From the NCBI GenBank assembly GCA_032871835.1, contig CM065297.1, positions 88,247,052 to 88,311,051 on the forward strand: 64,000 nt of DNA, read 5' to 3'. Shown piece after piece: positions 20,276-47,346 of this stretch. The position numbers and the translations under genes are program-made. The notes beneath the pieces were generated by a model that searched no databases, had not been told where the DNA came from, and was given only the letters and a program-made list of their open reading frames with translations. Source of the stretch: Dipteronia dyeriana. Lineage: Eukaryota; Streptophyta; Magnoliopsida; Sapindales; Sapindaceae. Position 1 is the first letter of the stretch. Every line of letters begins with the position of its first letter.

Positions 20276-21146
20276 TGTTGACGTCAATTTCTGGATTATG
20301 TCAGAAAAGCCGGATTTCGGCTATTAATTCAAAGAGAAAGAGATTCAGAGAAAGTAACGAAGACAAAAGTTTTATGTGGTAAAACTCCGATGACCGGAGA
20401 AACGTCCACGGGTGGTTGAAGGATCAACCAAGCCAAAATCCACTATGAAAATATGATGTTTACAAGCTCTCGATCTCTCTTTTTTCTCTCTGTATTTGCT
20501 ATGATTGCTTGTTGTGTGCTATATTACCTATATCTTTTGGAGCCGGATTATGAGTCTATTTATATGCTTATAGAACCCTAATCTGTTTTGTACAAGTAAT
20601 ACAAGATCTTTGTATTTAATTGTGATTCGGTTACTTGCTTGAGGTTGATTTGTCTTCTTTCCTGTTTCGGAGTCTCTTATGGAAATCGAGTGAGATTCTA
20701 GTAGTATAGTTCAATTTGGACTTGTTTCCTTATAAGAATGTAGTCTTCGTAAAGAAATCAAGTTATTTCCTGATTGAGAACTCTTCTAACTTAATGTTCC
20801 ATTTTATTTGAGATTCCTTCCTAATGGATATCTTCGCGTATTTAATGACTTAATCCGTATGAAATAAGCACCAAGTTCTTACTCGAGTCGTATTTATTCC
20901 CGAGTAAGAGTAATATTGATGGTCCCGAGTAGCGCCGTTTGAGCCCGAGTGGAAGCGTTGTTCAACCAGTCCCGAGTGTTGTTAACTGATCCCGAGTAGG
21001 TTTCATTCTATATATGCTTACTCGGGCTTTTCTTCTCTTTAATGATGTCTCGTAGGATATTTCCTGAGTGCCCATTTGGGCGTCCACCTAGCTATTTTCT
21101 CCTTTCTGTCAATGACGTGTATGCTTGGTAAAATTCACATACGACA
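20276..21146 (-). repeat. Element A 3' LTR
   Basis: An 871-bp repeat matching 31304-32185 with scattered substitutions (10 in a 250-bp stretch counted by eye) and an 11-bp deletion near its left end. It contains the conserved stem motif at 20371-20415. The TG...CA ends are intact. Confidence 0.93.
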
Positions 21147-21160
21147 ATACCCCCTTAAAA
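21147..21160 (-). other. Element A polypurine tract
   Basis: On the minus strand the tract reads TTTTAAGGGGGTAT directly before the LTR, the expected plus-strand primer site. The matching tract in element B is at 47335-47346. Confidence 0.8.
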
Positions 21161-21633
21161 TATTTTTACCAAGTTAATTTCATTTTGGGCAAGAGTATTT
21201 TAATCGTCTTAATTTTCACTTGTCAGAATAGCTGTCTTGTCATAATGGCACGTCTTAATGGTGACCCTGTAATTTCGATTCGATTCGATTCATCACGCGA
21301 GATCTTAAATGATGGCGACGTTTGAAGTTCTGACGGTTGAGGGCTACTTCCTGTTTTGACACGCGTCCCTCGTCTCTTCGTTTTTCAATATCATTTATGA
21401 GAAATGATTTTTGCGTTTCTCCAAACGCCTCCTACGTCATCGAGTTTCGTCATAAATTTTTTCCCACCTTGAAATCCTAGGGTTTCGTGTCGTCTCGTCT
21501 TTAAATTCTTTGCTGAGAGACATTGTTGGTTTATTCTTAAAAAAAATCAGCATAAATTTCTTTTAACTCAGATTTCTTTATCCAGAAGTTCGCTTGAAGA
21601 TCTTGCATCAATCTTAATTCAAGGTTAGTTTTA

Positions 21634-24576
21634 ATGGGGCCATCTTCCCGCCATCGTCTCTTTAAAATCGCTTTTGATGCATTAGAACGTGGGGATTTCC
21701 AGTTAGTATCTTGCATTAAACGATTACTGGGGGATATCCCAATAGATGAACCTCCATTCTTAGAGGTTGATGTTTCTGGGCTTCACTCTGACGTCACTTT
21801 CAGCCCTGTATCAAGTTCTCCATCTAGTTCTGATTTTGATATTTCTTATCACAGGGTATCTTTTCGAAGGATGGGTAAACATCAGAGCAGTAGTAAGGTA
21901 TACAAGCACGGCTCGAGCAGCGTTCAGACCAGGGAACAGACTGTTAACGAGGGTGACGTTGATGAAGTGTACATGGAATCTCGTCTTTTGTTTTCTGATA
22001 CTCGTCCGAGTGGCTTTGATACTGAGCCGAATGTGGTCGAGGCAGTTGAGATAGAAAAATACCGCTCCCGATTCGACTTGCCCGACTCAGTCACTTTGGT
22101 TCCTTTGGGGGATAGAGCCATATGGAATCCTCCCGAGAGAATAGTCACAATTTATGTATCCATGCTTTGCTGCGGCGTCACACTTCCCATTCAGCCTTTT
22201 ATTGCCTGGTTTTTGGCTGAAGCAGGGATAGCCCCAGCTCAGTTGGCCCCGAATAGTTACAAAGTCTTGATTTGCATGTGGCACATGTTCAGTCGAATGA
22301 ACCTTTTGCCGCCTTCCCCGAATGAAATCAGGCATTTCTTTACGCTGAGACAAGTTAGCAAAACGGGGACCTATTTTCTTGCGTCTACTCCTTCGGACAG
22401 TTGGGTCCCCAAAGAAGCAAAGGTGAATCAGGGGGTCGATGCTTCTGATGACCCAAAAAAGAAGGGTTTCATATGGGGATTCCCTACATCCAACAAATTT
22501 TGGAAGAACGGTTGGTTTTTCGCTGGAGGGGCTTTCGGGGTCGACATCACTGTTCGATCTGGGGATTCCCGAACGGTGTTGAGTGTTCCCCGCTTCTTCT
22601 GTTCCCCCGAAGTGTGGAACAAGAAAATAATTGATTATAGTGATTATGAGCTGAAGAGGCTGACTCGGGCAGCTGTTTGTACTCTGGAGAAGAGGAGTAA
22701 GAGCTTCTTCAGACAGGTTTCGGGCCATCGCAGGCGATGTAAGTAACCCGGCACCCTTTCTGTTGTATTTCTCTGCTTTTTTTTTCTAACATGATTTTTT
22801 TTTTAGTGTTCGATACAGACGTTGTCAGCGATCTTCAGGCTCGCCAGGTGAAGGCGATTCTATAAGTGAGTAGAAAAGAAGCTTTCCGTCAGGCGATGAG
22901 GGTATTGCTCCACCCGAGCCAGATGAGGAAACTGATATTGCTGAGTAAATTTCCGAGTGCGTTGATCGGGGTGCTCAGCCTTTTACTCAGGATTTTACTG
23001 GTCCAAGTGGCTAAGGTGAGCCAAATGACACCCAACTGCCTGAAAATAGGGAGAGACAATATGAAGGTCCGGGTGAAGAGCCTGTTGGACGGTTTGAAGC
23101 TGGCGATGGTGGTAACATTTTGACGGATCAAATGCCTGCAGGTGCCGAATTCTTTGAGTCTTTTTGGGACGATCCGCAGGAAGATCCTGCTGCTGATCTT
23201 AACTTCCACCTTTCTCGGGGTGAGAAGCGAAAGGCAGTTAGTTCGCCGTCTCGTCCACTCAAAGTTCCTTGGGTAGTCTCATTTATTTATTCCAGTGACG
23301 AAGATGTTGCGGATGAGATTGCCCCGAGTGTTGGCGCTGGAGCATCAGTAGATGCAACCGCTTTAGAACCGGGTAGGGCTTCTTCTACCCCCGAAGTCGG
23401 AGATATGGGGGCTGAACCTTCGAGGGTTCCTTCTCCATCCTTAGAACCGAACAGGGCTTCTCCTGCCCCCAAGTTTGGAAATCTGGGAGCTGAACCCTCG
23501 GGGGTTCCTTTATTCATTTCTCCCCAGGATATGCTACGGAAGATGTCCTCCGGTCGGGATTTTATCTGAGAGGACCGCTGGAGCGGTTTTAGAGATGGTT
23601 CACTGTCCGAACGTCTCCAAAACGTTTTCAACGGCACATCTTATGTAAGTTAAATCTGACTCAGTTAAATCTGACTCCTTTATTGTTTTGCTTCTGCCAG
23701 ATTTCTAAGTATATCCCTTTGCAGATGGTGGTCAAATTTGCTGAGCTTATTCAGATGCAGCAACATCAAGCCGATTGAATAAGGCGTCTAGAGGCTCAGC
23801 TGAAGGCCAGTGAGGAAGGCCGTGCTCGAGCCGAGAAAGCTTACCAGCAGAAGGTCGGTTCTGTATAAATATTTACCGACCATTATCTGGTGAAGCAGGT
23901 TGAAGCAGAGGATAAGGCATCTCTGGCAGAGGAGAAGGTTGCATCACTTCAAAATCTTCTATCTTCTGCTTAATAATCCATGCTCAAGTCCGAGCAGGAG
24001 GCGGAGCAGGCGAAGTCGGCGTATGACCAAAAAATTAAAGATCTGGAGCACCAAGTGCTGACAGTTGAATCCCTTTCCCGAGAGGCCTGGTTGGAACTGG
24101 AAGTCCAAGGGGTGGATCATTTTAAAAGATCCCCTGCTTACGATGCCCTATTTCTTCGGGAATTTCAACCTGGGCTAGTTTCGGCCGGTGAGTTCTTCAA
24201 AGTTAAGAATAGGGCGACCGAGAAAGACCGTACTAATTGAGAGCTGTCAATCAAACACCATGTGGACCGGTCCTTGGAATCTCTTCGAATTCAAATGAAG
24301 GAATGGAGAGCCTACTGTCGTAGTCAAGGCAAAGAGCCCCATCCCATGCATTTAGAGATTTCGTCCGAGCATTCTCTCTCGACCTTTTATGCAAGTCAAG
24401 AGTCGGTTGAGGGTGCAGTCCCAGATGTCGGGCCAGTCCCGGGTGAAGATTACAGCCAGTGGATGGATGATACTGTCGACGATATCACTTGGCCATCTAA
24501 TGAGAGCCTGCTTCGTGAGTACGAGATGGTGCCAGATCCGAGTATTGGCAAAGGCTCGAAATCCTCGCAACCTTGA
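21634..24576 (+). pseudogene. Antisense gene of element A (putative gypsy-type transposon domain protein)
   Basis: This gene lies on the strand opposite gag-pol, between integrase and the 3' LTR. The first exon (21634-22738, ATG at 21634) encodes an N-terminal Ser-rich region, then a domain with LPDSVTLVPLGDRAIWNPP, FIAWFLAEAGIAPAQLAPNS and EIRHFFTLRQVSKTGTYF that I recognise as the Pfam putative gypsy type transposon family. An intron at 22739-22806 (GTAAGT...TTTTTAG) joins it in frame to FDTDVVSDLQARQVKAIL. The middle is acidic and Ser/Pro-rich (two repeats of a GAEPS motif). The C-terminal part (23980-24576) is a charged coiled coil. A second intron may exist at 23645-23724. Stops at 22864 (CAA to TAA relative to element B) and elsewhere break it. 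Its role is unknown; extra ORFs of this kind are known in Tat-lineage elements. Confidence 0.75.
22739..22806 (+). other. Intron in the antisense gene of element A
   Basis: A 68-bp segment has the donor GTAAGT and a T-rich tract ending in TAG. Removing it joins the two flanking coding segments without a stop (codon split 1/2). The orthologous segment of element B (45605-45716, minus) has the same splice ends but 112 bp of different filling, which supports a real intron and not a frameshift. Confidence 0.75.
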
Positions 24577-24724
24577 TTTTGTAGAATTGTAGAAAATTCT
24601 GATTATTATTTTTTACTTGTACATAACCATTCTTTGAACTGTAACCATTCTTTTAAGAGCAATAAAACCTTATTTTATTCTGAATTGAATGGTCTTGATC
24701 TGTTCATTGCTGATTGTTGCCGAG

Positions 24725-25015
24725 TGCTGTATTAAACTGGCTGGTGTTCGGGTAACTTAACCGAGTATCTTATTAAACCGGTTGTTACCCGAATGACTTC
24801 AATTGCCAAGTATCTTATTAAACTGGCTTCTTCGATATTCGGGTAACTTAACCAAGTATCTTATTAAACCGGTTGTTACCCGAATGACTTTAATTGCCAA
24901 GTGTCTTATTAAACTGGCTTCTTCGATGTTCAGGTAACTTAACCGAGTATCTTATTAAACCGGTTGTTACCCGAATGACTTTAATTGCCAAGTGTCTTAT
25001 TAAACTGGCTCTTTA
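24725..25015. repeat. Tandem repeat in element A 3' region, about 3 copies
   Basis: The unit of about 90 bp consists of two related halves: cttattaaactggcttcttcg...gggtaacttaaccgagtat and cttattaaaccggttgttacccgaatgac. The halves carry complementary gggtaac and gttaccc boxes. The same repeat appears in element B at 43010-43745 with about 8 copies. Tat-lineage 3' regions are known to harbour such arrays. Confidence 0.85.
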
Positions 25016-26340
25016 TTATTAACCGAGTCATCTTGAAACAGAAGTTTACACTTGTGTTTCATACCCGGTTGCTACCCGAACGTTACATCAAGGCTCACCA
25101 TGATCATACGTTCGAGTCCTTAAGCAATACCAATGACGTCTACCTAATTTTTATGCGCAAGGGTTTGCCGAATCATTGAGATCTTTTTTTTAAAAAAAAG
25201 TTGCTTCAACACAGCTACGCATTTCACTGGAATTTCTCTCGATAGCGTCCCGAGCATTTTTCCAGAGTCTGGTGCATCGGGTTTGCCTTTTTGCGAAGGT
25301 CATTTTGACCATGATCAGCTGGTATGCTCATACGAGCTTCTCCGCCCATTCGGGATTTGATGGTCCCGAGAATTCTATTTGCATGTTCTTATTATCATGC
25401 TCTTCTTTCATATGTTCTTATTATCATATGCTTTCTTTTGGAAATCCCGAGCTAGATATTTTCCTTTCGGAAATTCCGAGTAATTTTATTTATTACTGTA
25501 AAAAGTTGACAGATTTAAATTAAAGTTTAATATTTATCCTACCAATATTGTCCTGACTAGAAAAAAAAAAAAATATTCAATATAAATATATATATATATT
25601 TTAAGGATAGAAAATCTTCAGATATTGGGCATTGCATGGTCGGGGTAACACCCCTCCATTAGGTCGAGCAATCCAATAAGCTCTATGGCCAGTTATCCCC
25701 TCGATCTTGTATGGACCTTCCCATTTGTCAGCCAGGGATCCTGCGGCTCTATTTTTTGTGTTCAATGACACCTTCCTGAGCACCAGGTCTCCTAGCTGGA
25801 ATTTCCTGATCCGAACACGAGAGTTGTAGTGATGAGCCACTCTTTATTGATATGTTGTATTTCTTATTCGGGACTTTTCCCTTTTTTCTTCTACCTCATC
25901 CAAACTTTGTAGTAGCATATCAACATTCTGTTCTTCATCGTATAGCCTAACCGGGGGGGACGCATACGATGTTTTTACGGGGATGACAGCTTCTGTTCCA
26001 AACGCTAAGGTGAACGGAGTTTCTCCTATTGAAGTCCTTGTTGTCGTCTGATATGCCCATAATACTTCAGGAAGCTTTTCAACCCAACTTTCTTTTTTGT
26101 CATCTAACTTTGCTTTAATGGTGTGCTTGATAATTTTATTTACTGCTTCTACTTGCCCGTTTGTTTGAGGATGAGCTGGTGTCTCATAGTAGTTAGCAAT
26201 CTGATACTTCTCGCACAACTGTCTGAACTTTTGGTTATCGAACTGAGTGCCATTGTTTGTGATTATAGTGTCCGGAACTCCAAACCTATAAAGTATGTTT
26301 TTCTTTACAAAATTTGTGGTGTTGGCTTCTGTGATATGCA
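24850..26340. repeat. Near-identical inverted tract, element A copy
   Basis: This stretch is almost identical to the reverse complement of 41677-43165 in element B. I counted identical 60-base lines over much of the integrase core and only isolated differences elsewhere, including in noncoding DNA. Outside the tract the two elements differ at roughly one base in ten. Confidence 0.8.
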
Positions 26341-26548
26341 CCAGCGCTTCAGCTTCTGCCCATTTTGTAAAATAATCGACAGCTATTATGACGTGCTTTG
26401 CTCCACCCCTGTCCCAGCTGGCATTGGCCCGATTAGGTTTAGGCCCCACATGGCGAATGGCCATGGGGCAGTGAGGTTTCTGAGCTTTTCTGGGGGTTAT
26501 CGGATATCGTTGGCAATCCTTTGACAGGTATTGCAACTTTTCGACCAC
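25601..26548 (-). pseudogene. Element A integrase (core and C-terminal part)
   Basis: The integrase would insert the cDNA copy into the genome. The core contains AVDYFTKWAEAEAL (first Asp), TIITNNGTQF and HPQTNGQVEAVNK (Glu). The second catalytic Asp is replaced by Asn (AAC at 26255-26257). The core runs from about 26420 to 25844 and ends at a TAA; the C-terminal piece (25601-25840, RVAHHYNSRVRIRKFQLGDLVLRK and WEGPYKI) follows directly in frame. Near 26400 a 2-base deletion relative to element B shifts the frame. Both the Asn and the TAA are also present in element B. Confidence 0.88.
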
Positions 26549-26599
26549 TGCTGTGCATCTGAGAAAAGCGTAGGCCAGTAATAGCCTTGCCTGAGTACC

Positions 26600-27370
26600 T
26601 TATGCGCCAGACTTCTAGCCCCAGTGTGGTTCCCGTAAACTCCTCCGTGGATCTCTTGAAGTATTCGATATGCATCTTCTTCCGGTACACATCTCTGGAG
26701 AGCTCGAGAAAACCCCCTTCAGTATAATTCTCCTCCGATCATGGTATACCTAGCCGATCGATACCTAATGCGCTTTGCTAATACCGGATCTTCCGGGAGC
26801 ACGCCTTCTTCCTGGAGCCTTCTCAGCTGGACCATCCAACCTTCTTGCGATGTTCTGATTTCTGAAATTTCTCAATGCTTAGGTTCAGCTGTACTCGATT
26901 TAAAGAGGTGTGCAACTGGAATGGTCTTTGGTCTGATTGGGGTTGTTGTTGACGCTAATTTAGACAATGTGTCAGCCTTTTCATTTTCTTCCCTAGGGAT
27001 CTGAACGATATTGTATTCTTTAAATTTTTGGAGAAGCTGTTTCACGATGTCACGGTAGGCTATCAGACCTTCATCTTTGGCCTGATACTCGTCCATAACC
27101 TGGTTGACAACTACCTGTGAATGGCTGAATATCTCAACTTCATCTGCCCCAAGAGCTATGCAGACTCTGATTCCAGCTAACAATGCCTCGTACTCGACTT
27201 AATTATTGGTTGCTTTAAAATCAAATCTCATGGCACATACAACATCATCTCTTTCTGGGGTGCGAACTACGATCCCTGCCCCGCTGCCATGAGTATTTGA
27301 AGAGCCATCAACAAACAGTTTCATGGGAAACTTTTTTTCAATAGTCTTTTTGCTTCCAGGTTTGGTACTG
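26600..27370 (-). pseudogene. Element A archaeal-type RNase H and integrase N-terminus
   Basis: The second RNase H of Tat elements reads KLFVDGSSNTHGSG, then a region with an in-frame TAA near 27199 (CAA in element B), then the best frame 26872-27183 with VEIFSHSQVVVNQVMDEY and PREENEKADTLSKLAS. The catalytic Asp in the FSDSQ box is changed to His here (FSHSQ). The zinc-binding HHCC segment of integrase follows toward 26600. Frameshifts and stops are present. Confidence 0.78.
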
Positions 27371-27399
27371 TGAATTCGGCTATGAAGTCTGCCACAGCT

Positions 27400-28389
27400 T
27401 GTCCTTTGAGGGAGGTTCTGGGGACATAATGAATATCGAATTCACTTAGCTCGATTGCCCATTTTAAGTCTTCCTGATATTTCTGGTTTTTGTAAAATTT
27501 ATCTTAATGGGCAATTGGTGAGAACCTGGATTGTATGGGCCTGAAAATATGGTCTCAGCTTTTTTGCTGCTGAAACCAATGCTAAGGCCATCTTCTCTGC
27601 CTGTGAGTACCTGGTCTCGGCCGGTACGAGTGCCTTGCTGGTATAATACACTGATTTTTGCACTCCATCTTCTGTTCTTACTAAGACTGAACTTGCTGCA
27701 AGCTCGGTTATTGACAGATACAGCTGAAGTATTTCCCCTTTTTACGGTTTTGAGAGAACGGGACCTTGTCCCAAGTACTCTTTTATTTTTAAAAATGCCT
27801 GCTCACACTCTTTATTCCACTCGAGTCATTTCCCTTTTTTGATTATCTTGAAGAAAGGTGCACAACTGTCTGTAGCTCTTGAGATGAATCTTCCCAAGGA
27901 GGCTAAACACCCTGTTAAGCGATATACCTTTTTCAATGTTTTAGGTGAGGTCATTTCTTGCAAAGCCTGGATCTTCTCGGGATTAACTTCTATTCCTCTT
28001 TGATGGACTTGAAAACCCAAGAATCTCCCCGAATGGACTCCGAATAAACATTTGTTCGGGTTTAATTTCATCTGGTATCTTTTCAGAACATCAAATGTCT
28101 CTCGGAGGTCCCGGGCATGCTCATCTGTCGAGACGCTTTTAGTCAACATGTCATCAATGTACACTTCCATGTTCCTTCCTATTTGCCGAGTGAAGATTTT
28201 GTTGACCAACCTTTGATATGTAGCACCTGTATTTTTTAAACCGAAGGGCATTACTGTGTAGCAATATAAACCCTGATCCGTTGTGAAAGCTGTTTTTCCT
28301 TTATCAGCTTTGTTCATCCGGATCTGATTGTATCCCGAGTAAGCATCCATGAAGCTAAGCAATTCGTGACCCACTGTGGCATCCACCAA
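27400..28389 (-). pseudogene. Element A reverse transcriptase and first RNase H
   Basis: The segment at 27826-28389 carries FMDAYSGYNQIRMN, KTAFTTDQGLYCYTVMPFGLKN, the catalytic box EVYIDDMLTKS, and KCLFGVHSGRFLGFQVHQRGIEV, typical of Ty3/gypsy RT palm and thumb. A TGA near 27826 separates it from the first RNase H (27400-27820), whose frame is also broken, with an in-frame TAA near 27748 shared with element B. The YIDD box itself is intact. Confidence 0.85.
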
Positions 28390-29823
28390 CTAGTCTATCC
28401 TTGGAAGTGGGAAGCTATCCTTTGGACATGCCTTGTTTAGATCCATGAAATCTACGCACATCCTCCATTGTCCATTTTTCTTCTGGACGAGGACTATGTT
28501 GGCGACCCACTGAAGGTAGCTGACTTCTCTGATTGATCCAGTTGCCAATAGCTTTTCCACCTCTTGTTTGATTGCTTGACTTCTTTCAGGATTGAACGAT
28601 CTTCTCTTTTGTATAACCGGTTTTGCATTCGGGCTAACTGCGAGGTGGTGGGATATTACTCGGGCATCTATTCCGATCATATATTCGTGACTCCAAGCGA
28701 ACACATTTTTGTACTCTCTAAGCAGATTGGTCAAGTCTTGCTTGACTTTTCCATCCAAGTTGGCCCTGATCTTGATTTTCTTATCCGGTTTGTCTTCTTC
28801 AAGTACTATTTCAACCAATTCTGTTTTGTATTCATTCGAGCCCTCCCTTGGATCCAGTTCGAATGACAAGGATTCTTCACACTGATTTGGCTGCATTATG
28901 GTGCACACTTGTTCAGCATCATGCTTGTCTTTGTATACTGACAGGTTTGCTCTTCGGGCCATCTCTTGAGATCCCTTGACTATCCCAACCCCTTGTTCTG
29001 TCGGGAACTTGATCATTAATGCATAAGCGGCCGTCACGCCCCTTGTTTTATTCAGTAATGGCCGGCCCAATAATGCATTGTACGGCCAATTATCCAAGTC
29101 AACTACCACGAAGTCGAGTAGGACAGTCCTCTGGGATGGTGCCGTTCCGATCTTCACGGGTAGTTTTACCGTCCCGAGTGACCTGACCTCTATCCCCCCA
29201 AACCCTCTTAATGGAGTATGGAAAGGCTGTAAATCTTTTCGGTGTAGTCTTAGTTGGTCGTACACGGCCACACTTAGGATGTCTGCTGAACTCCCATTAT
29301 CTATTAAAATTCTCCGGACTTCCCTATGGCCAATCCAGACACTTATAACCAAAATATCATTAGGTCGAACATCGACGCCATAGAAATCTGCCTCTGTAAA
29401 GACTATTGGGTCACATCCTTCCTTTACCCTTTTCGGGTCTGGCTCAACCGAGTTTACGTCGAAGTTATTCCTTGCTTCTATTGCTTCTCTGATTTCCTGA
29501 GTTCGTTCTCGGTTGCTTCTCCTAGTAGAGGGTCCTCCGAAAATTGTATGTATTACTTGATTGGCTTCGGGGGTGGTTCTTTGATTTTGACCCGGGTTAT
29601 GATCAACCTTGACTTCTTTCTTAGTTTCTGATCTCTCATCTTTTTTCAAGATTACATCCCGCAGGTGCCATTCTCGAATAAGAGTCTCTATGTAATCTCT
29701 GAGCTGAAAACACTTTGAAGTCTCATGCCCGGTTTCTTTATGAAACCTGCAGTACTTGGTTGTATCTCTCCGGGAAAACAGTGATTGTCGCCGCGGCTCT
29801 TGCACAATATTCTTCTCTTCCAA
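28390..29823 (-). pseudogene. Element A gag C-terminus, protease and RT N-terminus
   Basis: This 477-codon frame starts within gag: residues near 25-38 form the zinc knuckle YCRFHKETGHETSKC. The aspartic protease follows with RRILIDNGSSADIL. Then comes the linker to RT, with QRRSFNPERSQAIKQEV and MCVDFMDLNKACPKDSFPLP. The frame stops at TAG (28390-28392), which is CAG in element B, and RT continues in frame directly after it. The frame therefore covers gag end, protease and RT fingers in one piece. Confidence 0.88.
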
Positions 29824-29997
29824 GATGTCTAAAATTTTTTCTTGTTTTTTCCAAAGAGGGGTATAATTGGTATATCTGCCTCGGTATTTCTCTGTGGACC
29901 GTTCGACGTTGAGCCCATTACCCTCATCCTTGTTTTTCTCCTTGCCGTTCCCTTTCAGTTTTTCCTTTTGATTCAGCCCCTTGGATTCGGTATTCTT

Positions 29998-31257
29998 CTA
30001 TTCGGGCTTTCCTCCATGCATATAGCTACCTCCTGTAGCTAACTCTTCCTCCTCGACCAGAGTGTATTCTTCTGCCATATCCATCATGTCAGCATACTTA
30101 GTCAGTCGTGCTCTTCTCAAATCAAAGGACAGTCGTCCATTCTGCAAGTTATTGGTGAAGGCAGCAATAATTGCTTCATCATTAGCACTGCCAATTTCTG
30201 ATACTGCTCGGCCGAACCGGCCAAAGTACTTTTTTAATGACTCGTCCTTCCCTTGCTTTATTTGAGAGAGGTAGGCCACCGACTTCTTCCTGTGAACATT
30301 GCTCAGAAATTGCCTTGAGAAGCTCCTGCTCAGTTCGCTGAAATTTTCGATGCTCACCGGGGGTAGTCTTTCGAACCATCTTGACCCTGTGTCCCCTAGT
30401 GTTTGCGGAAAGTTGAGACACAATAGGGGGTCACTACGGGCATATTGAGCCATGGCGCTTTTATAGCGTCTAACGTGCTCCTTTGGATCTGTGTCTTTTT
30501 TGAATTGCTCCACATGCCGCATCCTCAATCTTTCTGGGAAAGGGGTCCTCAAAATTTCCTTGGTGAATGGACTGTCAGAGTCATCGTCAGATAGATCGTT
30601 ACAACCATAACATCTGACCAGTGCCTCCATCTGTCGCATGTTATTCTCAACTTCTTGAGTTAGGCTCTGGATCTTGACATCTCTGTCCCCCATCGGACTT
30701 TCCCGACGGTTAAACCTTTGGGTTATCATCATTCTTTCCTCAGACTCTTCACTCTGATGCCGGTCCTCTCGTGTGACTCCATGATGACGTTTGCGATGGT
30801 GTTGATCACTGTCTTCTGATGATGACCGACCTCTGCGCTGGTCGTATTTACGATGTCTGGTCCGTACTGTTTGATTGTAGTCCAGCCTCTGGTGATGTTC
30901 CTCTTCAATTGTTTTCTGTCCAAACGGGTTGATTGGGGAAGAGTTTCTTCTAGTTTCTGGCATAGTTATTCCTGGCCCAACCATCATTGAACGGAGCCTT
31001 GCGGGTGGAGGATTGGGAGTATGTGCTCCTGCAGCCAGTAGATCAATCCCTTCCCTTGCTGCGACCATCACCAATTGTTGCAAGGCCTCTTGGAAACGCA
31101 GCGTAAGATCTCTGCTGGTTGGAGGAACTTGCTGGATCCCCGCCAGATGCGCAGGCTGTTTTTCTGTATCTGCTGTAGGATCTTGTGACCTATTACCAAC
31201 ATGGAAATCGCCTGGTGATTTTTGGCCATTCCCTGAACTACTTCTACTTCCTGCCAT
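29998..31257 (-). pseudogene. Element A gag
   Basis: Gag forms the virus-like particle. The likely start is the ATG at 31255-31257 (MAGSRSSSGNGQKSPGDF), since the upstream in-frame ATG lies in the primer-binding leader. The N-terminal half is polar and Arg/His-rich (RHRKYDQRRGRSSSEDSD). The retrotransposon-gag core follows with TPFPERLRMRHVEQFKKDTDPKEHVRRYKSAM and WFERLPPVSIENFSELSRSF (read here in two pieces). The frame ends at TAG, which is CAG in element B, shortly before the zinc knuckle, so about 420 residues remain. Confidence 0.88.
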
Positions 31258-31285
31258 CACTTTTAACAAGTTCGGAGGTTTAACC

Positions 31286-31301
31286 CCTCTTTCTAGCGTC
31301 A
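31286..31301 (-). other. Element A primer-binding site
   Basis: On the minus strand, two bases after the LTR end, the sequence TGACGCTAGAAAGAGG aligns with TGGCGCTAGAAGGAGG in element B and TGCCGCTAGAAGGAGG in element C. The A copy has lost one of the two G bases that pair with tRNA CCA. I could not assign the primer tRNA. Confidence 0.65.
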
Positions 31302-31303
31302 AT

Positions 31304-32185
31304 TGTTGACGTCGATTTCTGGATTATGTCAGAAAAGCCCACAAGGATTGGATTTCAGCTATTAATTCAATGAGAAAGAGATTCAGAGAGAGTAACGAAG
31401 ACAAAATTTTAACGTGATAAAACTCCGATGACCGGAGAAACGTCCATGGGTGGTTGAAGGATCAACCAAGCTAAAATCCACTATGAAAATATGATGTTTA
31501 CAAGCTCTCGATATCTCTTTTTTCTCTCTGTATTTGCTATGATTGCTTGTTGTGTGCTATATTGCCTATATCTTTTGGAGCCGGATTATGAGTCTATTTA
31601 TATGCTTATAGAACCCTAATCTGCTTTGTACAAGTAATACAAGATCTTTGTATTTAATTGTGATCCGGTTAATTGCTTGAGGTTGATTTGTCTTCTTTCC
31701 TGTTTCAGAGTCTCTTATGGAAATCGAGTGGGATTCTAGTAGTGTAGTTCAATTTGGATTTTTTTCCTTATAAGAAAGTAGTCTTCGTAAAGAAATCAAG
31801 TTATTTCCTGATTGGGGACTCTTCTAACTTAATGTTCCATTTTATTTGGGATTCCCTCCTGATGGATATCTTCGCGTATTTAATGACTTAATCCGTATGA
31901 AATAAGCACCAAGTTCTTACTCGAGTCGTATTTATTCCCGGGTAAGAGTAATACCTGATGGTCCCGAGTAGCCCCGTTTGAGCCTGAGTGGAAGCGTTGT
32001 TCAACCAGTCCCGAGTGTTGTTAACTGATCCCGAGTAGGTTTCATTCTATATATGCTTACTCGGGCTTTTCTTCTCTTTAATGATGTCTCGTAGGATATT
32101 TCCTATGTGCCCATTTGGGCGTCCACCTGGCTATTTTCTCCTTCCTGTCAATGACGTGTATGCTTGGTAAAATTCACATACGACA
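31304..32185 (-). repeat. Element A 5' LTR
   Basis: An 882-bp LTR. In element orientation it starts TGTCGTATGTGAATTTTACC and ends GACGTCAACA. A TATA box (TATAAATA at 31595-31602, minus) is conserved in the LTRs of B. The stem motif lies at 31408-31452. Confidence 0.92.
31595..31602 (-). promoter_or_regulatory. Candidate TATA box of element A 5' LTR
   Basis: TATAAATA within a catataaatagac context that is preserved in element B (36424-36431) and element C, suggesting the U3/R boundary lies about 30 bp downstream. Confidence 0.6.
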
Positions 32186-35861: not shown

Positions 35862-36718
35862 TGTCGTATGTAAATTTTACCAAGCATACACGTCATTGAC
35901 AGGAAGGAAAAAATAGTCAGGTGGACACCCAAATGTGCATTCGGGAAATATCATATAAGGCATCATTAAAGAGAAGAAAGCCCGAGTAAGCATATATTGA
36001 ATAAAACCTACTCGGGACTGGTTAATCAACGCCTCCACTCGGGCTCAAACGGTACTACTCGGGACCATCAGGTATTACTCTTACTCGGGAATAAATACGA
36101 CTCGAGTAAGAACTTGACGCTTATTTCATACGGATCAAGTCATTAAATACGCGACGAAATACATCAGGAAGGAATCCCAAATAAAATAGAGCATTAAATT
36201 AGAAGAGTTCCCAATCAGGAAACAACTTGATTTCTTTACGAAGACTACATTCTTATAAGGAAACAAGTCCAAATTGAACTGCACTACTAGAATCTTGCTC
36301 AATTTTCATAAGGGACTCCGAAACAGGAAAGAAGAAAAATCGACCTCAAGAAAGTAACCGAATCACAATTAAATACAAAGATCCTGTATTACTTGTACAA
36401 GGCAGATTAGGGTTCTATAAACATATAAATAGACCCATAATCTCGTCCAGAAAAGATATAGGCAATATAGCATACAACAATTATAGTGAAGACAGAGAGG
36501 AAAAAGAGAGATCGAGAGCTTGTAAAACATCTTATTCTCTTAGTGGATTTTTGCTTGGTTGATCTTTCAACCACCCATGAATGTTTCTCCGGCCATTGGA
36601 GTTTTACCACGTAAAACTTGTCATTTTTACTCTCTCTGCATCTCTTTCTCTTTGATTCAATAGCCGAGATCCAATTCTTGTTGGCTTTTCTGGCATAATC
36701 TAGAAATCGATGTCAACC
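35862..36718 (+). repeat. Element B 5' LTR
   Basis: It starts TGTCGTATGTAAATTTTACC. The final base is C, not the A of the usual CA end (CAACC at 36714-36718). It lacks about 20 bp present in the 3' LTR near 47503-47522. The stem motif is at 36571-36617. Confidence 0.92.
36424..36431 (+). promoter_or_regulatory. Candidate TATA box of element B 5' LTR
   Basis: TATAAATA in the context catataaatagaccca, shared with elements A and C. Transcription would start about 30 bp on and read into gag. Confidence 0.6.
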
Positions 36719-36720
36719 AT

Positions 36721-36736
36721 TGGCGCTAGAAGGAGG
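36721..36736 (+). other. Element B primer-binding site
   Basis: TGGCGCTAGAAGGAGG, two bases after the LTR end, with the TGG needed to pair with a tRNA CCA end. The primer tRNA was not assigned. Confidence 0.75.
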
Positions 36737-36764
36737 GGGCGAACCTCCGAACTTGTTAAAAGCA

Positions 36765-38040
36765 ATGGCAGGAAGCAGAAGTAGTTCAGGGAATGACCAA
36801 AAATCACCAGGCGATTTCTATGTTGGCAATACGTCACAAGAACCTGCAGCAAACACAGAAAACCAGCCTGCACACCTGGCAGGGATCCAGCAAATTCCCC
36901 CAACCAGCAGAGATCTTACGCTGCGTTTCCAAGAGGCCTTGCAGCAATTGGTGACGGACGCAGCAAGGGAAGGGATTGTTCTACTGGCCGCAGAAGCATA
37001 TACTCTCAATCCTCCATCCGTAAGGTTCCGTTCGATGGTGGTGGGGCCAGGAATGACTATGCCAGAAACCAGAAGGAACTCTTCCCCAATCAATCTAGCT
37101 GGACAGAAAACACTAGAAGAGGAAAATCACCAGAGGTTGGATCGCAATCAAACAATACGTGCCAGACATCATAAATACGATCGGCGCAGAGGACGGTCAT
37201 CATCAGAAAGTGATCAACACCATCGTAAACGTCATCATGGAGTCACACGAGAGTTCCAGCATCAAAGTGAAGAGTCTAAGGAAAGAATGACAATTACCCA
37301 ACGGTTCAACCGTCAAGGAAGCCCGGTAGGGGACAGAGATGTCACAATCCAGAGCCTAACTCAAGAAGTAGAGAATAACAGGCGACAGATGGAGGCATTA
37401 GTCAGACGTTACGGCTGTAACGATCTATCCGACGATGACTCCGACAGTCCATTCACCAGGGAGATTTTACGGATCCCTTTCCTAGAAAGATTCAGGATGC
37501 CTCATGTGGAGCAATTCAAAAAAGATACATATCTAAAGGAGCACGTTAGACGTTATAAAAGTGCCATGGCTTAATATGCCCGCAGTGACCCCCTATTATG
37601 TCTCAACTTTTCGTAAACACTGGAGGACACAAGCTCAAGATGGTTTGGAAGACTACCCCCGGCTAGCATTGGAAATTTCAGCGAGTTGAGCGGGAGTTTC
37701 TCAAGGCAATTCCTGAGCAACGTTCACAGGAAGAAGTCAGTGGCCTACCTCTCTCAAATAAAGCAGGGGAAGGACGAGTCATTAAAAAAGTACTTGGGTC
37801 GATTCGGCTTAGCAGTATCAGAAATTGGCAGTGCTAATGATGAAGCAATTATTGCTGCCTTCACCAATAACTTGTAGAATGGACGACTATCCTTCGATTT
37901 GAGAAGAGCACGGCTGACTAGGTACGCCGACATGATGGATATGGCGGGAGGATACGCTCTGGCCGAGGAAGAAGAGTTAGCTACATGAGGAAGCTATATA
38001 CATGGAGGAAAGCCCGAACAGAAGAATACCGAATCCAGGG
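36765..38040 (+). pseudogene. Element B gag
   Basis: It starts at ATG 36765 (MAGSRSSSGNDQKSPGDF), matching the chosen start of A. The Arg/His-rich region (HHKYDRRRGRSSSESDQHH) and gag core (RFRMPHVEQFKKDTYLKEHVRRYKSAM) follow. A TAA at 37572 replaces a CAA of element A. Later breaks are a frameshift before 37686, a TAG at 37875 (CAG in A), and a TGA near 37986. The C-terminal part before the zinc knuckle continues to about 38040. Confidence 0.86.
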
Positions 38041-38092
38041 GCAGAATCAAAAGGAAAAATAGAAAGGGAACAGCAAGGAGAAAAACAAGGAT

Positions 38093-39468
38093 GTGGGTAA
38101 TGGGCTCAACGCCGAATGGTCCACAGAGAAATACCAAGGCAGATATACCAATTACACCCCTCTTCGGAAGAAACATAAAGAAATTCTAGCCATCTTGGAA
38201 GAAAGGAATATGGTGCAAGAACAGTGGCGACAATCACAGTTCACCCGGAGAGATACAACCAAGTATTGCAGGTTTTATAAAGAAATCGGGCATGAGACTT
38301 CAAAGTGTTTTCAGCTCAGAGATTACATAGAGACTTTTATTCGGGAAGGGCACTTGCGGGATGTAATCTTGAAAAAAGACGAGAGACCAGAAACCAAGAA
38401 AGTCAAGGTTGATCACAACCCTAGTCAAAACCAAAGAACCAGCCCTGAAGCCAATCAAGTAATACATACAATTTTCGGAGGACTTTCTACTGGGAGAAGC
38501 AACCGAGAACGAACTCAGGAAATCAGAGAAGCAGTAGAAGAAAGGAATAACTTTGACGTAAACTCGGTTGAACCAGCCCCGAAAAGGGTAAAGGAAGGAT
38601 GGGACCCAATAGTCTTTACAGAGGCAGATTCCCATGGCATCGATGTTCGACCTAATGATGCTTTGGTTATAAGTGCCCGGATTAGCCATAGGGAAGTCCG
38701 GAGAATTTTAATAGATAATGGGAGCTCAGCAGACATCCTAAGCGTGGCCATATACGACCAGCTAAGACTAGACCGAAAAGATTTACAGCCTTTTCATACT
38801 CCATTAAGAGGATTTGGGGGAATAGAGGTCAGGTCACTCGGGACGGTAAAACTACCTGTGAAGATCGGAACGGTACCATGCTAGAGGACTGTCATGCTCG
38901 ACTTCGTGGTAGTTAACTTGGATAATTGGCCGTATATGCATTATTGGGCCGGCCATTCCTGAATAAAACAAGGCCCGTGACGGCCACTTATGCATTAATG
39001 ATCAAGTTCCAAACAGAACAAGGGGTTGGGATAGTCAAGGGATCCCAAGAGATGGCCCAAAGAGCAAATCTGTCAGTATACAGAGACAAGCATGATGCTG
39101 AACAAGTGTGCACCATAATGCAGCCAAATCAGTGTAAAAAATCCTTGTCATTCGAACTGGATCCAAGGGAGGGCTCGAATGAATACAAAACAGAATTGGT
39201 TGAAGTGGTACTTGAAGAAGACAAACCGAACAAGAAAATCAAGATAAGGGCCAACTTGGATAGAAAAGTCAAGCAAGACTTAACCGATCTGCTTAGAGAA
39301 TACAAAGATGTATTCACCTGGAGTCACGAAGATATGATCAGGATAGATGCCCGAGTAATATCCCACCACCTCGCAGTAAGCCCGGATGCAAAACCGATAA
39401 TACAAAAAAGAAGATCGTTCAATCCTGAAAGAAGTCAAGCAATCAAAAAAGAGGTGGAAAGTTACTAG
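38093..39468 (+). pseudogene. Element B gag zinc knuckle, protease and RT N-terminus
   Basis: The frame 38093-38884 holds the zinc knuckle YCRFYKEIGHETSKC, in which the first His of the A version is Tyr, and the protease box RRILIDNGSSADIL. It stops at TAG 38882-38884 (CAG in A). The next frame (38926-39468) continues with LLGRPFLNKTRPVTATYALM and QRRSFNPERSQAIKKEVE, then a small deletion shifts the frame at the start of RT. Confidence 0.85.
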
Positions 39469-39479
39469 CGATTGGATCA

Positions 39480-40542
39480 ATCAGAGAAGTCAGCTACCCT
39501 CAGTGGGTCACCAACGTAGTCCTCGTCCAGAAGAAAAATGGACAATGGAGGATGTGCGTAGATTTCACGGATCTAAACAAGGCGTGTCCAAAGGATAGCT
39601 TCCCACTTCCAATGATAGATCAGCTGGTGGATGCCACAGCAGGTCATGAATTACTCAACTTCATGGATGCTTACTCAGGATATAATCAGATCTGGATGAA
39701 CAAAGCTGATGAAGAAAAAACAACTTTCACAACGGATCAGGGATTATATTGCTACACAGTTATTCCCTTTCGGTTAAAAAAATGCAGGAGCTACATACCA
39801 AAGGTTGGTCAACAAAATCTTTACTCGGCAAATAGGAAGGAACATGGAAGTGTACATTGATGACATGTTGACTAAAAGCGTCTCAACAGATGAGCATGCC
39901 AGCGACCTACGAGAGACATTTGATGTTTTGAGAAGATACCAGATGAAATTAAACCCAAACAAATGTTTATTCGGAGTCCATTCGGGAAGATTCCTGGGTT
40001 TTCAAGTCCATCAAAGAGGAATCGAAGTTAATCCCGAGAAGATCCAGGCTTTGCAAGAAATGACCTCACCTAAAACACTGAAAAAGGTACAGCGCTTTAC
40101 AGGGTGTTTAGCCTCCTTGGGAAGATTCATCTCAAGGGCTACAGACAGTTGTGCACCTTTCTTCAAGATAATCAAAAAAGGGAAAGGCCTTGAGTGGAAT
40201 AAAGAGTGTGAGAAGGCATTCTTAAAAATAAAAGAGTACTTGGGACAAGCTCCCATCCTCTCAAAATCGTAAAAAGGGAAAATACTTCAACTGTATCTAT
40301 CAATAACCGAGCTTGCAGCAAGTTCAGTCTTAGTCAGAACAGAAGATGGAGTGCAGAAACCAGTGTATTATACTAGCAAGGCACTCGTACCGGTCGAGAC
40401 CAGGTACTCACAGGTAGAGAAGATAGCCTTAGCATTGGTTTCATCAGCAAAAAAGTTGAGACCATATTTTCAGGCCCATACGATCCAGATTCTCACCAAT
40501 TGCCCATTAAGGCAAATCTTACAAAAGCCAGAGATATCATGA
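39480..40542 (+). pseudogene. Element B reverse transcriptase and first RNase H
   Basis: RT blocks are MCVDFTDLNKACPKDSFPLP, FMDAYSGYNQIWMN and, after a frameshift in an A run near 39780, the catalytic EVYIDDMLTKS in 39805-40272. The frame stops at a TAA near 40270 shared with element A. RNase H continues in 40351-40542 (KPVYYTSKALVPVETRYSQVEK, LRPYFQAHTIQILTNCPLRQ) and stops at a TGA. Confidence 0.86.
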
Positions 40543-40620
40543 CGACTTACTAAATGGGAAATCGAGTTAAGTGAATTCGATATTCATTATGTCCCAAGAA
40601 CTTCCCTCAAAGGACAAGCG

Positions 40621-41571
40621 GTGGCAGACTTCATAGCCGAGTTCACAGAACCAAACCTGGAAGCAAAAAGACTGTTGGATAAAAGTTTCCCATGGAAACT
40701 ATATGTTGATGGTTCTTCAAACACTCATGGCAGCGGGGTAGGGATCGTAGTTCGCACCCCAGAAGGAGATGATGTTGAATGTGCCATGAGATTTGATTTC
40801 AAAGCAACCAATAATCAAGCCGAACACGAGGCATTGTTAGTTGGACTCAGAGTCTGCATAACTATTGGGGCAGATGAAGTTGAGATATTCAGCGATTCAC
40901 AGGTAGTTGTCAACCAGGTTATGGACGAGTACCAGGGCAAAGATGAAGGAATGATTGCCTACCGTGACATTGCAAAACAGCTCCTCCAAAAATTTAAAGA
41001 ATACAAGATCGCTCAGATCCCCAGAGAAGAAAATGAAAAGGCGGACGCTTTATCTAAATTAGCGTCAGCAACAACTTCAATCAGACCTAAAACCATTCCA
41101 GTTGCACACCTCCTTAAACCGAGTACAGCTGAACCTAAGCATTTGGAAATTTCAGAAATCCGAACACAGCAAGACGGTTGGATGGTCCAGCTGAGAAGGT
41201 TCATGGAAAAAGGCATGCTCCCGAAAGATCCGGTATTAGCAAAGTGTATCAGGTATCGATCGACTAGGTATACCATGATCGGAGGAGAATTATACAGAAG
41301 GGGGTTTTCCCGAGCTCTCCAGAGATATATACCAGAAGAAGATGCACATCAAATTTTTCAAGAGATCCACGAAGGAGTTTGCGGGAACCACACTGGGGGT
41401 AGGAGTCTGGCGCATAAGGTACTCAAGCAAGGCTATTATTGGCCTACACTTTTCTCAGATGGACAACAATGGTCGGAAAGTTGCAACACCTGTCAAAGAA
41501 TTGCCAACGATATCCGACAACCCCCAGAAAAGCTCAAAAATCTCACCGCCCCATGGCCATTCTCCATGTAG
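40621..41571 (+). pseudogene. Element B archaeal-type RNase H and integrase N-terminus
   Basis: This 316-codon frame is the best preserved copy of the second RNase H: LYVDGSSNTHGSGVGIVV (Asp), NNQAEHEALLVGL (Glu), VEIFSDSQVVVNQ (Asp) and EENEKADALSKLAS (Asp). It is followed by the integrase zinc-binding HHCC region (HEGVCGNHTGGRSLAHKVL then SCNTCQRIAN). It ends at TAG 41569-41571, where element A has TGG. The presence of this second RNase H is the strongest sign of the Tat lineage. Confidence 0.9.
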
Positions 41572-42417
41572 GGCTTACACCTGATCGGTCCAATTCCAGC
41601 TGGGACAGGGGATGGAGCAAAGCACGCCATAATAGCTGTCGATTATTTCACAAAATGGGCAGAAGCTGAAGCGCTTGTGCATATCACGGAAGCCAACACC
41701 ATAAATTTTGTAAAGAAAAACATACTTTATAGGTTTGGAGTTCCGGACACTATAATCACAAACAATGGCACTCAGTTCGATAACCAAAAGTTCAGACAGT
41801 TGTGCGAGAAGTATCAGATTGCTAACTACTATGCGACACCAGCTCATCCTCAAACAAACGGGCAAGTAGAAGCAGTAAATAAAATTATCAAGCACACCAT
41901 TAAAGCAAAGTTAGATGACAAAAAAGGAAGTTGGGTTGAAAAGCTTCCTGAAGTATTATGGGCATATCAGACGACAACAAGGACTTCAATAGGAGAAACT
42001 CCGTTCACCTTAGCGTTTGGAACAGAAGCTGTCATCCCCGTAAAAACATCGTATGCGTCCCCCCCGGTTAGGCTATACGATGAAGAACAGAATGTTGATA
42101 TGCTACTACAAAGTTTGGATGAGGTAGAAGAAAAAAGGGAAAAGTCCCGAATAAGAAATACAACATATCAATAAAGAGTGGCTCACCACTACAACTCTCG
42201 TGTTCGGATCAGGAAATTCCAGCTAGGAGACCTGGTGCTCAGGAAGGTGTCATTGAACACAAAAAATAGAGCCGCAGGATCCCTGGCTGACAAATGGGAA
42301 GGTCCATACAAGATCGAGGGGATAACTGGCCATAGAGCTTATTGGATTGCTCGACCTAATGGAGGGGTGTTACCCCGACCATGCAATGCCCAATATCTGA
42401 AGATTTTCTATCCTTAA
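41572..42417 (+). pseudogene. Element B integrase core and C-terminus
   Basis: The core reads GLHLIGPIPAGTGDGAKHAI then VDYFTKWAEAEAL, TIITNNGTQF and HPQTNGQVEAVNK. The second catalytic Asp is Asn (AAC at 41761-41763), exactly as in element A. A TAA at 42172-42174 precedes the C-terminal piece (42178-42417), which is identical in protein sequence to that of A. From 41677 onward this region lies in the near-identical tract. Confidence 0.88.
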
Positions 42418-43745: not shown

Positions 43746-43886
43746 ATAATCAGCAAAAAATAGACCAAAACCATTCAACTCAATAAAATTGAATTTTATT
43801 GCTCCTAAAAGAATGGTTACAGTTCAAAGAATGGTTCTTTACAAGTAAAAAAATAAAGAATCAGAATTTTCTGCAAATTCACAAAA

Positions 43887-46858: not shown

Positions 46859-47334
46859 TAAAACTAACCTTGAATTGAGAACTGATACAAGATCTTCAAG
46901 CGAAGAATCGCGAACTTCTGGATAAGTAAATCTGAGGTTAAAGAAATTTCTACTGAATTTTTAAGAATAAACCAACAATGTATCAGCGAAGAATTTAAAG
47001 ATGAGACGGCACGAAACCCTAGGACTTCAAAGCGGGAAAAAATTTATAACAAAACTCGATGACTTAGGCGGCGCTTGGGGAAACGTAAAAATCATTTTTC
47101 ATAAATGATATTGAAAAACGAAAGACGGAGGACGCGTGTCAAAACAGGAAGTAGCCCTCAACCGTCAGAACTTCAAAACGTCACTATCATTTAAGATCTC
47201 GCGTGATGAAGCGAATCGAAATTACAGAGTCACCATTAAGACACGCCATAACGACAAGATGGCTATTCTGACGAGAGAAAATTAAGATGATTAAAATACT
47301 CTTGCCCGAAAAAAATTTTCTTGATAAAAATATT

Positions 47335-47346
47335 TTAAAGGGGTAT
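47335..47346 (+). other. Element B polypurine tract
   Basis: TTTTAAAGGGGTAT-type sequence directly before the TGTCGTATG LTR start, matching the tract of element A. Confidence 0.78.

What the first reader, a model, noticed from the sequence alone, without database searches (positions are those of the whole stretch)
21634..24576. Spliced gene antisense to gag-pol inside a Tat-lineage retrotransposon, conserved in two copies
Elements A (21634-24576, plus) and B (43887-46858, minus) carry a gene opposite to gag-pol, with a conserved putative-gypsy-type-transposon domain, an acidic middle and a coiled-coil tail. An intron at the same codon in both has different length (68 versus 112 bp) but the same GTAAGT donor and TAG acceptor, and its removal restores the frame in both. 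A retrotransposon whose genomic RNA must stay intact can keep an intron only on the antisense strand, where the genomic transcript does not show the splice sites in usable orientation. Extra ORFs in Tat elements are known; the conserved intron and coiled-coil architecture seem worth describing. Element B has lost the start codon.
Basis: partly seen in the sequence, partly recalled or inferred. Interest (0 to 1): 0.75.

Follow-up and report, generated by a model that had tools for sequence, protein, structure and literature searches.

The report
Spliced antisense gene inside plant retrotransposon
Two decayed copies of a plant retrotransposon carry, on the strand opposite to their main genes, a known kind of extra gene that appears to be split by two introns at positions shared with relatives in maple, so surveys that looked only for unbroken reading frames probably saw pieces of it.

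Summary
Elements A and B are Tat-clade (probably Retand) LTR retrotransposons. Between pol and the 3' LTR each carries an antisense gene with a weak Transposase_28 (TRP28, PF04195) match. Intron 1 (68 bp in A, 112 bp in B) lies exactly where stated. A second intron (80 and 78 bp) was missed, so the gene has three exons. Maple (Acer) homologues join exons at the same residues: 65 of 101 anchored proteins at junction 1, 38 of 63 at junction 2. Eight unannotated homologues read into the intron instead. A-B comparison shows purifying selection: Ka/Ks 0.45 for exon 1 and 0.26 for exon 3, gag 0.26, shifted frames 0.73-1.23; exon 2 gives no signal. Both window copies are dead. Splicing is unproven: no RNA data were available. 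Antisense TRP28 genes are already a known Retand hallmark. The conserved two-intron structure, and the reading that separately reported TRP28 and coiled-coil antisense ORFs are exons of one gene, appear in none of the listings and passages I saw. The claim that introns survive only on the antisense strand is too strong, because Ogre has a sense intron.

The parts
20276..21146 (-). Element A 3' LTR (element on minus strand)
   Evidence: blastn of the two ends, 94.9% identical with gaps counted; JC divergence 0.041; TG...CA ends
21147..21633 (+). Upstream region of the antisense gene between LTR and start codon; TATA-like site near 21451, weaker than B's
   Evidence: pattern search and reading; promoter activity not tested
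21634..22738 (+). Antisense gene, copy A, exon 1 (N-terminal helices and TRP28 region); open throughout, with a 36-bp in-frame gap relative to B
   Evidence: ORF; PF04195 E 6e-05, below cut-off; 44% identical to maple P0072 residues 1-400; Ka/Ks 0.447, bootstrap 0.285-0.691; gap
22739..22806 (+). Copy A intron 1, 68 bp, GTAAGT...TAG, phase 1
   Evidence: maple P0016 alignment ends at 22737 and restarts at 22806
22807..23644 (+). Copy A exon 2 (acidic, Ser/Pro-rich linker with a basic KRK motif seen by eye); several stops and one frameshift
   Evidence: 28-34% identity to maple proteins P0072, P0016 and P0082 over its long piece; Ka/Ks 0.66 in its late part, bootstrap 0.32-1.41
23645..23724 (+).
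   Evidence: maple P0072 and P0082 exon 3 alignments begin at 23725
23725..24576 (+). Copy A exon 3 (coiled coil and conserved C-terminal region); five in-frame stops
   Evidence: 59% identical to maple P0072 residues 703-981; Ka/Ks 0.258, bootstrap 0.15-0.41
24661..24666 (+). AATAAA 85 bp after the stop codon, candidate poly(A) signal; B has one at 43800
   Evidence: position only
24747..25010 (.). Tandem array of 91-bp repeats between pol and the antisense gene, copy A
25844..31302 (-). Element A gag-pol remains: gag (29998-31302), RT (27826-28389), integrase (25844-26548)
   Evidence: Pfam Retrotrans_gag, RVT_1, rve in three of the four A ORFs scanned
31303..32185 (-). Element A 5' LTR
35862..48223 (+). 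Element B, bounded by LTRs 35862-36719 and about 47346-48223, with ATAAG on both flanks (5-bp target duplication)
   Evidence: RVT_1, RVT_3 (archaeal-type RNase H) with Integrase_H2C2, and rve in order in three of the six B ORFs scanned
45717..46858 (-). Antisense gene, copy B, exon 1; start codon lost, one frameshift, one stop
45605..45716 (-). Copy B intron 1, 112 bp, GTAAGT...TAG
   Evidence: maple P0016 alignment ends at 45718 and restarts at 45605
44791..45604 (-). Copy B exon 2, several frameshifts
44713..44790 (-). Copy B intron 2, 78 bp, GTAAGT donor kept, no AG at the 3' end
   Evidence: one search printed one base too many at the 3' end
43887..44712 (-). Copy B exon 3, one frameshift and one stop
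43009..43720 (.). Tandem array of 91-bp repeats, copy B, 7.9 units

Best explanation
This is the antisense accessory (TRP28) gene of a Retand-type Tat retrotransposon, and it is a three-exon spliced gene. RNA polymerase II would start between the 3' LTR and the gene and read towards pol. Two short T-rich introns would be removed and the transcript would end at the AATAAA just short of the tandem repeats. The product would have an N-terminal TRP28 region, an acidic disordered linker, a coiled coil of about 150 residues and a conserved helical C-terminal region. From its coiled coil and the literature on relatives, I think it most likely works as an oligomeric nuclear protein that binds DNA or chromatin and regulates the element's transcription or the fate of its pre-integration complex. 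The introns survive every round of copying because the packaged genomic RNA is the opposite strand, on which the splice sites do not read as GT...AG. Shown here by computation: exon-intron anatomy, the same junctions in maple relatives, purifying selection on exons 1 and 3, a predicted long helix, decay of both copies. Inferred: transcription, splicing, protein function, reason for persistence.
For: Junctions: maple homologues stop and restart at the edges of intron 1 in A and B, and exon 3 begins right after intron 2 in A. 65 of 101 anchored homologues (159 held, 58 without the anchor) join exon 1 to exon 2 at the same residue, and 38 of 63 anchored ones join exon 2 to exon 3 so. Selection: Ka/Ks 0.447 (0.285-0.691) for exon 1 and 0.258 (0.15-0.41) for exon 3, against 0.257 for gag, 0.392 for ORF 28390-29823 and 0.157 for RT; shifted frames of exons 1 and 3 give 0.73-1.23. 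Structure: helix 689-836 of maple P0072, with ten-residue mean pLDDT of 89 or more for residues 721-820 and 69-83 in the rest from 691 to 840. 43 of 159 held proteins contain both the TRP28 core motif and the C-terminal motif, so the two parts belong to one annotated protein there. Donors GTAAGT in four of four introns, AG in three of four acceptors; on the gag-pol strand these sites do not read GT...AG. Relatives: PMC11963269 reports antisense TRP28 ORFs in 97% of clusters and predicts DNA binding; PMC7264820 reports an own promoter and nuclear localisation for Grande gene23.
Against: No RNA evidence: neither transcription nor splicing of this gene was seen. All 65 exact joins at junction 1 carry Acer names, mostly Acer saccharum, so the gene models are not independent, and I do not know how they were predicted. 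The one Dipteronia protein with the anchor (P0022) joins a few residues further on. All eight 'ena' proteins that reach junction 1 (P0001, P0006, P0008, P0017, P0018, P0025, P0054, P0134) read into the interval; I could not tell whether their contigs are genomic, where this is expected, or transcripts, where it would count against splicing. Other models use other acceptors or skip pieces (most of the 21 of 101 in that class). The late part of exon 2 shows no significant selection (0.66, 0.32-1.41) and one of its shifted frames scored lower (0.54); the first 120 codons of exon 1 alone are not significant either (0.50, 0.26-1.07). TRP28 is below Pfam's cut-off in both copies and in P0072 too (25.6 bits). 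The exon 1 model has low confidence (pLDDT 52) and matched nothing in PDB at E 0.001, so DNA binding rests on the literature. Both copies are non-functional.
Confidence: 0.7

Rival explanations
1. The antisense transcript, not the protein, matters: it pairs with the genomic RNA and feeds small-RNA control of the element, and the reading frame is incidental.
For: PMC7264820 raises this possibility for antisense ORFs; PMC12786077 describes RNA-level effects of antisense transcripts of LTR elements (passages).
Against: Frame-specific purifying selection in exons 1 and 3 and protein-level similarity of 44% (exon 1) and 59% (exon 3) to maple P0072 need a translated product. Both roles can coexist.
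Confidence: 0.12
2. The intervals are not spliced. They are non-coding gaps between two or three separate antisense ORFs, or an alternative end of a shorter TRP28 protein that reads into the interval and stops.
For: Several homologues end in the interval, some with several members (P0001 11, P0002 8), and all eight 'ena' proteins that reach junction 1 read into it. Both earlier surveys counted separate ORFs (PMC6317226 used getorf from 250 codons; PMC11963269 used ORF Finder and conserved ORFs from 600 bp).
Against: Donor and acceptor at the homology edges in both copies, phase kept, interval length 68 and 112 bp while the flanks align; the homologous beginning of exon 2 has no ATG of its own; the same residues are joined in many maple proteins.
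Confidence: 0.12
3. The segment is a host gene fragment captured recently by this one family, now decaying.
For: Intron-containing genes are usual for hosts (general knowledge); both window copies are broken.
Against: The same gene, introns included, exists as multi-member clusters in maple (P0072 and P0098 with 41 members each, P0104 with 27), and the same domain in the same position is reported in 97% of Retand clusters (PMC11963269). LTR divergence of 4% is much less than A-B synonymous divergence of 18-24%, so the gene was inherited through earlier copies.
Confidence: 0.04

Closest known systems
Antisense TRP28 (PF04195) ORFs of Retand elements (PMC11963269; PMC6317226)
   Same: Position between pol and 3' LTR, antisense orientation, Transposase_28 similarity, tandem repeats in the same region; SMC-like and other domains also reported antisense in some clusters.
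   Different: Reported as unbroken ORFs; the words intron and coiled have no occurrence in the 2025 main text. Here the TRP28 and coiled-coil parts are exons of one gene with two conserved introns.
Grande gene23 of maize (Gomez-Orte 2013, not read; described in PMC7264820)
   Same: Antisense gene between pol and 3' LTR, own promoter, nuclear protein.
Ogre elements (sister Tat lineage; PMC6317226 and PMC12786077, passages)
   Same: Tat clade, extra RNase H before integrase, an intron in an LTR retrotransposon.
   Different: Ogre's intron is in the sense strand between gag-prot and pol and is spliced from only part of the transcripts; its extra ORFs carry the plant mobile domain in 57% of elements.
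HTLV-1 antisense gene HBZ (PMC1459196, search listing only; PMC11963269 text)
   Same: Antisense transcripts starting in the 3' LTR of a retroelement, spliced and polyadenylated according to the listed title; nuclear product.
   Different: Unrelated protein and virus; a works-like comparison only. There the splicing was observed on transcripts.

Membership tests
Tat clade of Ty3/gypsy | Archaeal-type RNase H in addition to the RT-linked RNase H, placed between RH and INT in Ogre/Retand (PMC6317226) | tested here: met
   B 40621-41571: PF13456 E 1.2e-21 followed by Integrase_H2C2. In A the corresponding stretch was not among the four ORFs scanned, and the RT-linked RNase H was not identified separately.
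Tat clade of Ty3/gypsy | Placement in the RT/RH/INT tree | not tested
   No reference RT set was fetched.
Retand lineage | Antisense ORF between pol and 3' LTR | tested here: met
   A and B both.
Retand lineage | TRP28 domain in that ORF | tested here: inconclusive
   E 6e-05 and 6.5e-04 but 23.6 and 20.3 bits, under the cut-off of 26.2; homologues P0001, P0002 and P0072 carry a precomputed PF04195 label, though P0072 scored 25.6 here.
Retand lineage | Long POL-3'LTR region (2,933-6,566 bp in PMC11963269), often with tandem repeats | tested here: met
   About 4.7 kb in A (25844 to 21146) and about 5.2 kb in B (42174 to 47346), with 91-bp repeats in both.
Retand lineage | Primer binding site type | not tested
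   Sequence next to the 5' LTR seen, not compared with tRNAs.
Ogre lineage | Sense intron between gag-prot and pol | not tested
   Only the interval 29700-30102 of A, after the gag ORF, was looked at: one in-frame stop and same-frame continuation. The prot-RT interval was not examined.

The most novel reading that the evidence does not exclude
The antisense TRP28 gene of Retand elements is an ancient two-intron gene. The element has carried both introns through countless rounds of reverse transcription because they sit on the strand that is never packaged. It was then acquired as genomic DNA, not through an mRNA. The TRP28 and SMC-like antisense ORFs catalogued separately across flowering plants would be exons of this one gene.
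Probability: 0.5. Interest if true: 0.65.

Novelty: new variant of a known kind. Interest (0 to 1): 0.5.

Why it matters
If spliced, the gene has been under-annotated in surveys that used open reading frames, such as the two I saw. In maple P0072 the full protein has 989 residues, of which exon 1 makes about 400, and the best conserved part, the third exon, had no accepted Pfam family in the scans run here. Conserved introns inside a retrotransposon are a natural test of which strand goes through the RNA intermediate. They also bear on the open question of where these genes came from, since an intron-bearing gene is unlikely to have been picked up as mRNA. The prediction is directly testable with existing plant RNA-seq data.

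Tried and rejected
Tried without result. The window's own genome: the genome search was asked the same question eleven times and never answered, so copy number, age and introns of other copies in the host are untested, and the host is not identified. Related loci: exon 1 alone and two small alignments matched patterns in viral contigs (9, 36 and 101 stretches) but none was confirmed; one alignment matched 51 stretches in prokaryote genomes, none confirmed. Structure: exon 1 model pLDDT 52, no PDB match at E 0.001, no PDB sequence relative with the profile of A1 up to E 1. The P0072 model was not searched against a library. Papers: nine searches. None of the listings or passages seen describes introns in the antisense TRP28 gene, but the primary papers on Grande, RIRE2 and Retand were not read, so this is not proof of novelty.

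Considered and rejected. A third intron in exon 3 of A near 23855-23900: the maple proteins align straight through. Overlapping start-stop re-initiation near 23120 (A) and 45303 (B), suggested by the ORF list: the maple alignments follow one frame through this point, so the stop belongs to a shifted frame. A sense intron right after the gag ORF in A: the interval is in one frame with a single stop. Coiled coil by Pfam: no accepted family.

Limits of the counts. Junction classes rest on hand-written patterns. 58 of 159 proteins lacked the junction 1 anchor and 96 lacked the junction 2 anchor; they were not counted. By eye P0105 and P0110 look exact at junction 1 but failed the pattern; at junction 2 P0093, P0123, P0135 and P0141 look exact but were not counted. 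The third protein search found 164 proteins, of which 120 were listed, and scored only the 7998 candidates sharing most words. One search used intron 2 bounds that are off by up to three bases. In one search the integrase ORF gave 0.94 (0.38-4.6) on few changes, inside the near-identical tract noted below.
Full report
What is there. The window holds two related LTR retrotransposons in opposite orientation. Element A lies on the minus strand with LTRs at about 20276-21146 and 31303-32185. Element B lies on the plus strand with LTRs at about 35862-36719 and 47346-48223. The LTR pairs differ by 4.1% and 4.2% (Jukes-Cantor). B has the same five bases, ATAAG, on both flanks; A shows no matching flanks. 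Pfam finds gag, reverse transcriptase and integrase in three of four A ORFs scanned. In three of six B ORFs it finds reverse transcriptase, an archaeal-type RNase H (PF13456) directly before the integrase zinc-binding domain, and the integrase core. An extra RNase H before integrase marks the Ogre and Retand lineages of the Tat clade (PMC6317226, passages). The antisense gene, the tandem repeats of 91 bp and the long region between pol and the 3' LTR point to Retand (PMC11963269, parts 1-3 of 5 read). I did not build an RT tree.

The gene. In both elements a gene runs from near the 3' LTR towards pol, opposite to gag-pol. Copy A has an open exon 1 of 368 codons; the shifted frames of the same stretch hold 15 and 32 stops in A. 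Exon 1 matches Transposase_28 weakly, at 23.6 bits in A and 20.3 in B against a cut-off of 26.2.

Comparison with maple proteins places its edges independently. Maple P0016 residues up to 370 align to exon 1, ending at 22737 in A and 45718 in B. Residue 371 onwards aligns from 22806 in A and 45605 in B.

Maple P0072 aligns from residue 703 onwards to 23725 of A, straight after the intron, and then without interruption to 24558 at 59% identity. So the gene has three exons, and its third exon is better conserved than the first (59% against 44% for P0072).

Relatives. Three protein searches gave 64, 36 and 164 hits (120 of the last listed), 159 distinct proteins in all. Nearly all named ones are from Acer saccharum, with single ones from other Acer and a few from Dipteronia sinensis; some have no named source. 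Of 101 proteins in which the end of exon 1 could be anchored, 65, all with Acer names, continue at the same residue into exon 2. Eleven carry residues of the intron, four end at or just past the donor, and 21 use another join or failed my pattern. Of 63 anchored at junction 2, 38 join exactly. Proteins that pass right through intron 1 (P0088, P0101, P0134, P0150) show unrelated residues between conserved flanks, as expected if the interval is an intron. Clusters with 41, 41 and 27 members (P0072, P0098, P0104) show that full-length forms are multi-copy; P0098 and P0104 join exactly at both junctions, P0072 only at the second.

Against this, the maple models share a species and probably an annotation pipeline, so they are not independent proof of splicing. 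All eight proteins marked 'ena' that reach junction 1 read into the interval. That is expected if their short contigs are genomic DNA and would count against splicing if they are transcripts; the source does not say.

Selection. Between A and B, Ka/Ks is 0.447 for exon 1 (bootstrap 0.285-0.691) and 0.258 for exon 3 (0.15-0.41). Shifted frames of exons 1 and 3 give 0.73-1.23. Gag gives 0.257, ORF 28390-29823 0.392 and RT 0.157. For the late part of exon 2 the value is 0.66 (0.32-1.41), and its shifted frames give 0.54 and 1.86, so exon 2 shows nothing. The first 120 codons of exon 1 alone are not significant (0.50, 0.26-1.07). Part of the A-B difference arose after insertion; subtracting about 0.041 from both Ka and Ks as a rough correction gives about 0.28 for exon 1, 0.10 for exon 3 and 0.13 for gag (my arithmetic, assuming that LTRs change at the neutral rate). 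So before these copies died, exons 1 and 3 were kept under selection not unlike that on gag.

Decay. Neither copy is functional. A has several stops and a frameshift in exon 2 and five stops in exon 3. B has lost its start codon, has a frameshift and a stop in exon 1, several frameshifts in exon 2, a frameshift and a stop in exon 3 and a broken intron 2 acceptor. Exon, intron and flank identities between A and B are all 87-93%, so raw identity alone would not have shown constraint; the codon-level test does.

Protein. The AlphaFold2 model of the maple protein P0072 (989 aa) has low overall confidence (pLDDT 51.5). It contains one continuous helix, residues 689-836, with ten-residue means of 89 or more for residues 721-820, followed by another helix to 902. 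Its long middle is without predicted structure. The exon 1 model of A is poor (pLDDT 52; only the first 30 residues and about 190-250 well defined) and has no PDB match. The coiled coil is thus supported by prediction. DNA binding by TRP28 is only a published prediction (PMC11963269).

How it most likely works. Transcription would start between the 3' LTR and the gene; B has a TATAAA there and A a weaker site. Grande gene23, a studied relative, has its own promoter and a nuclear product (PMC7264820, parts 1-2 of 3 read; the primary paper was not read). The transcript would be spliced twice and end near the AATAAA present in both copies (A 24661, B 43800). The protein would act in the nucleus as an oligomer on DNA or chromatin. 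The introns persist because the genomic RNA is copied from the other strand, on which A's introns read CT...AC. All of this paragraph is inference except the sequence features.

What is new. Antisense TRP28 genes in Retand elements are known and common. I saw no report that they are spliced: the 2025 survey's main text has no 'intron' and its two hits for 'splic' are in the reference list. The 2020 review asks for a search for antisense and spliced transcripts. A 2025 review says plant LTR retrotransposons generally lack introns apart from Ogre and EVADE (PMC12786077, passages). Both surveys defined extra ORFs as unbroken frames. A spliced gene would be cut by that rule into a TRP28 ORF and coiled-coil ORFs, and the 2025 survey does list antisense TRP28 ORFs and, separately, antisense SMC-type domains. 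The primary papers on Grande, RIRE2 and Retand were not read, so prior description is possible.

An intron in a retrotransposon is not confined to the antisense strand. Ogre keeps a sense intron by splicing only part of its transcripts (PMC6317226, passages). The right statement is that the antisense position makes full splicing harmless to the genomic RNA.

Noticed in passing
24901-26300 against the minus strand of about 41700-43100: A and B differ at 4 of 1400 aligned bases here, while the stretch beyond 26400 differs by 7-12% and each element's own LTRs by 4%. This looks like recent gene conversion or recombination between the two inverted copies, or an assembly effect.
   Followed up: partly
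20276-32185: Element A has no matching 5-bp flanks although element B has (ATAAG), which fits a past recombination at A.
   Followed up: no
24747-25010 and 43009-43720: 91-bp tandem repeats between pol and the antisense gene, 2.9 units in A and 7.9 in B: the number differs between two copies of one family.
   Followed up: no
49808-50199: A fragment 69% identical to the end of A's gag region, a remnant of a more distant relative.
   Followed up: no
17290-19630, minus strand: A pectinesterase gene with an inhibitor domain, apparently in two exons, starting about 650 bp from element A.
   Followed up: no
418-2335, minus strand: Mutator-type (MuDR) transposase gene: MULE, SWIM and DNA-binding domains.
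   Followed up: no
53455-54420 and 61502-62575: Copia-type pieces: integrase with SH3-like domain, and gag-pre-integrase with integrase.
   Followed up: no
exon 3 of A (24100-24574) and of maple homologues: A strongly conserved C-terminal region around the motif RSPAYDALLLREF has no accepted Pfam family; 61 of 159 held proteins contain RSPAYD.
   Followed up: partly
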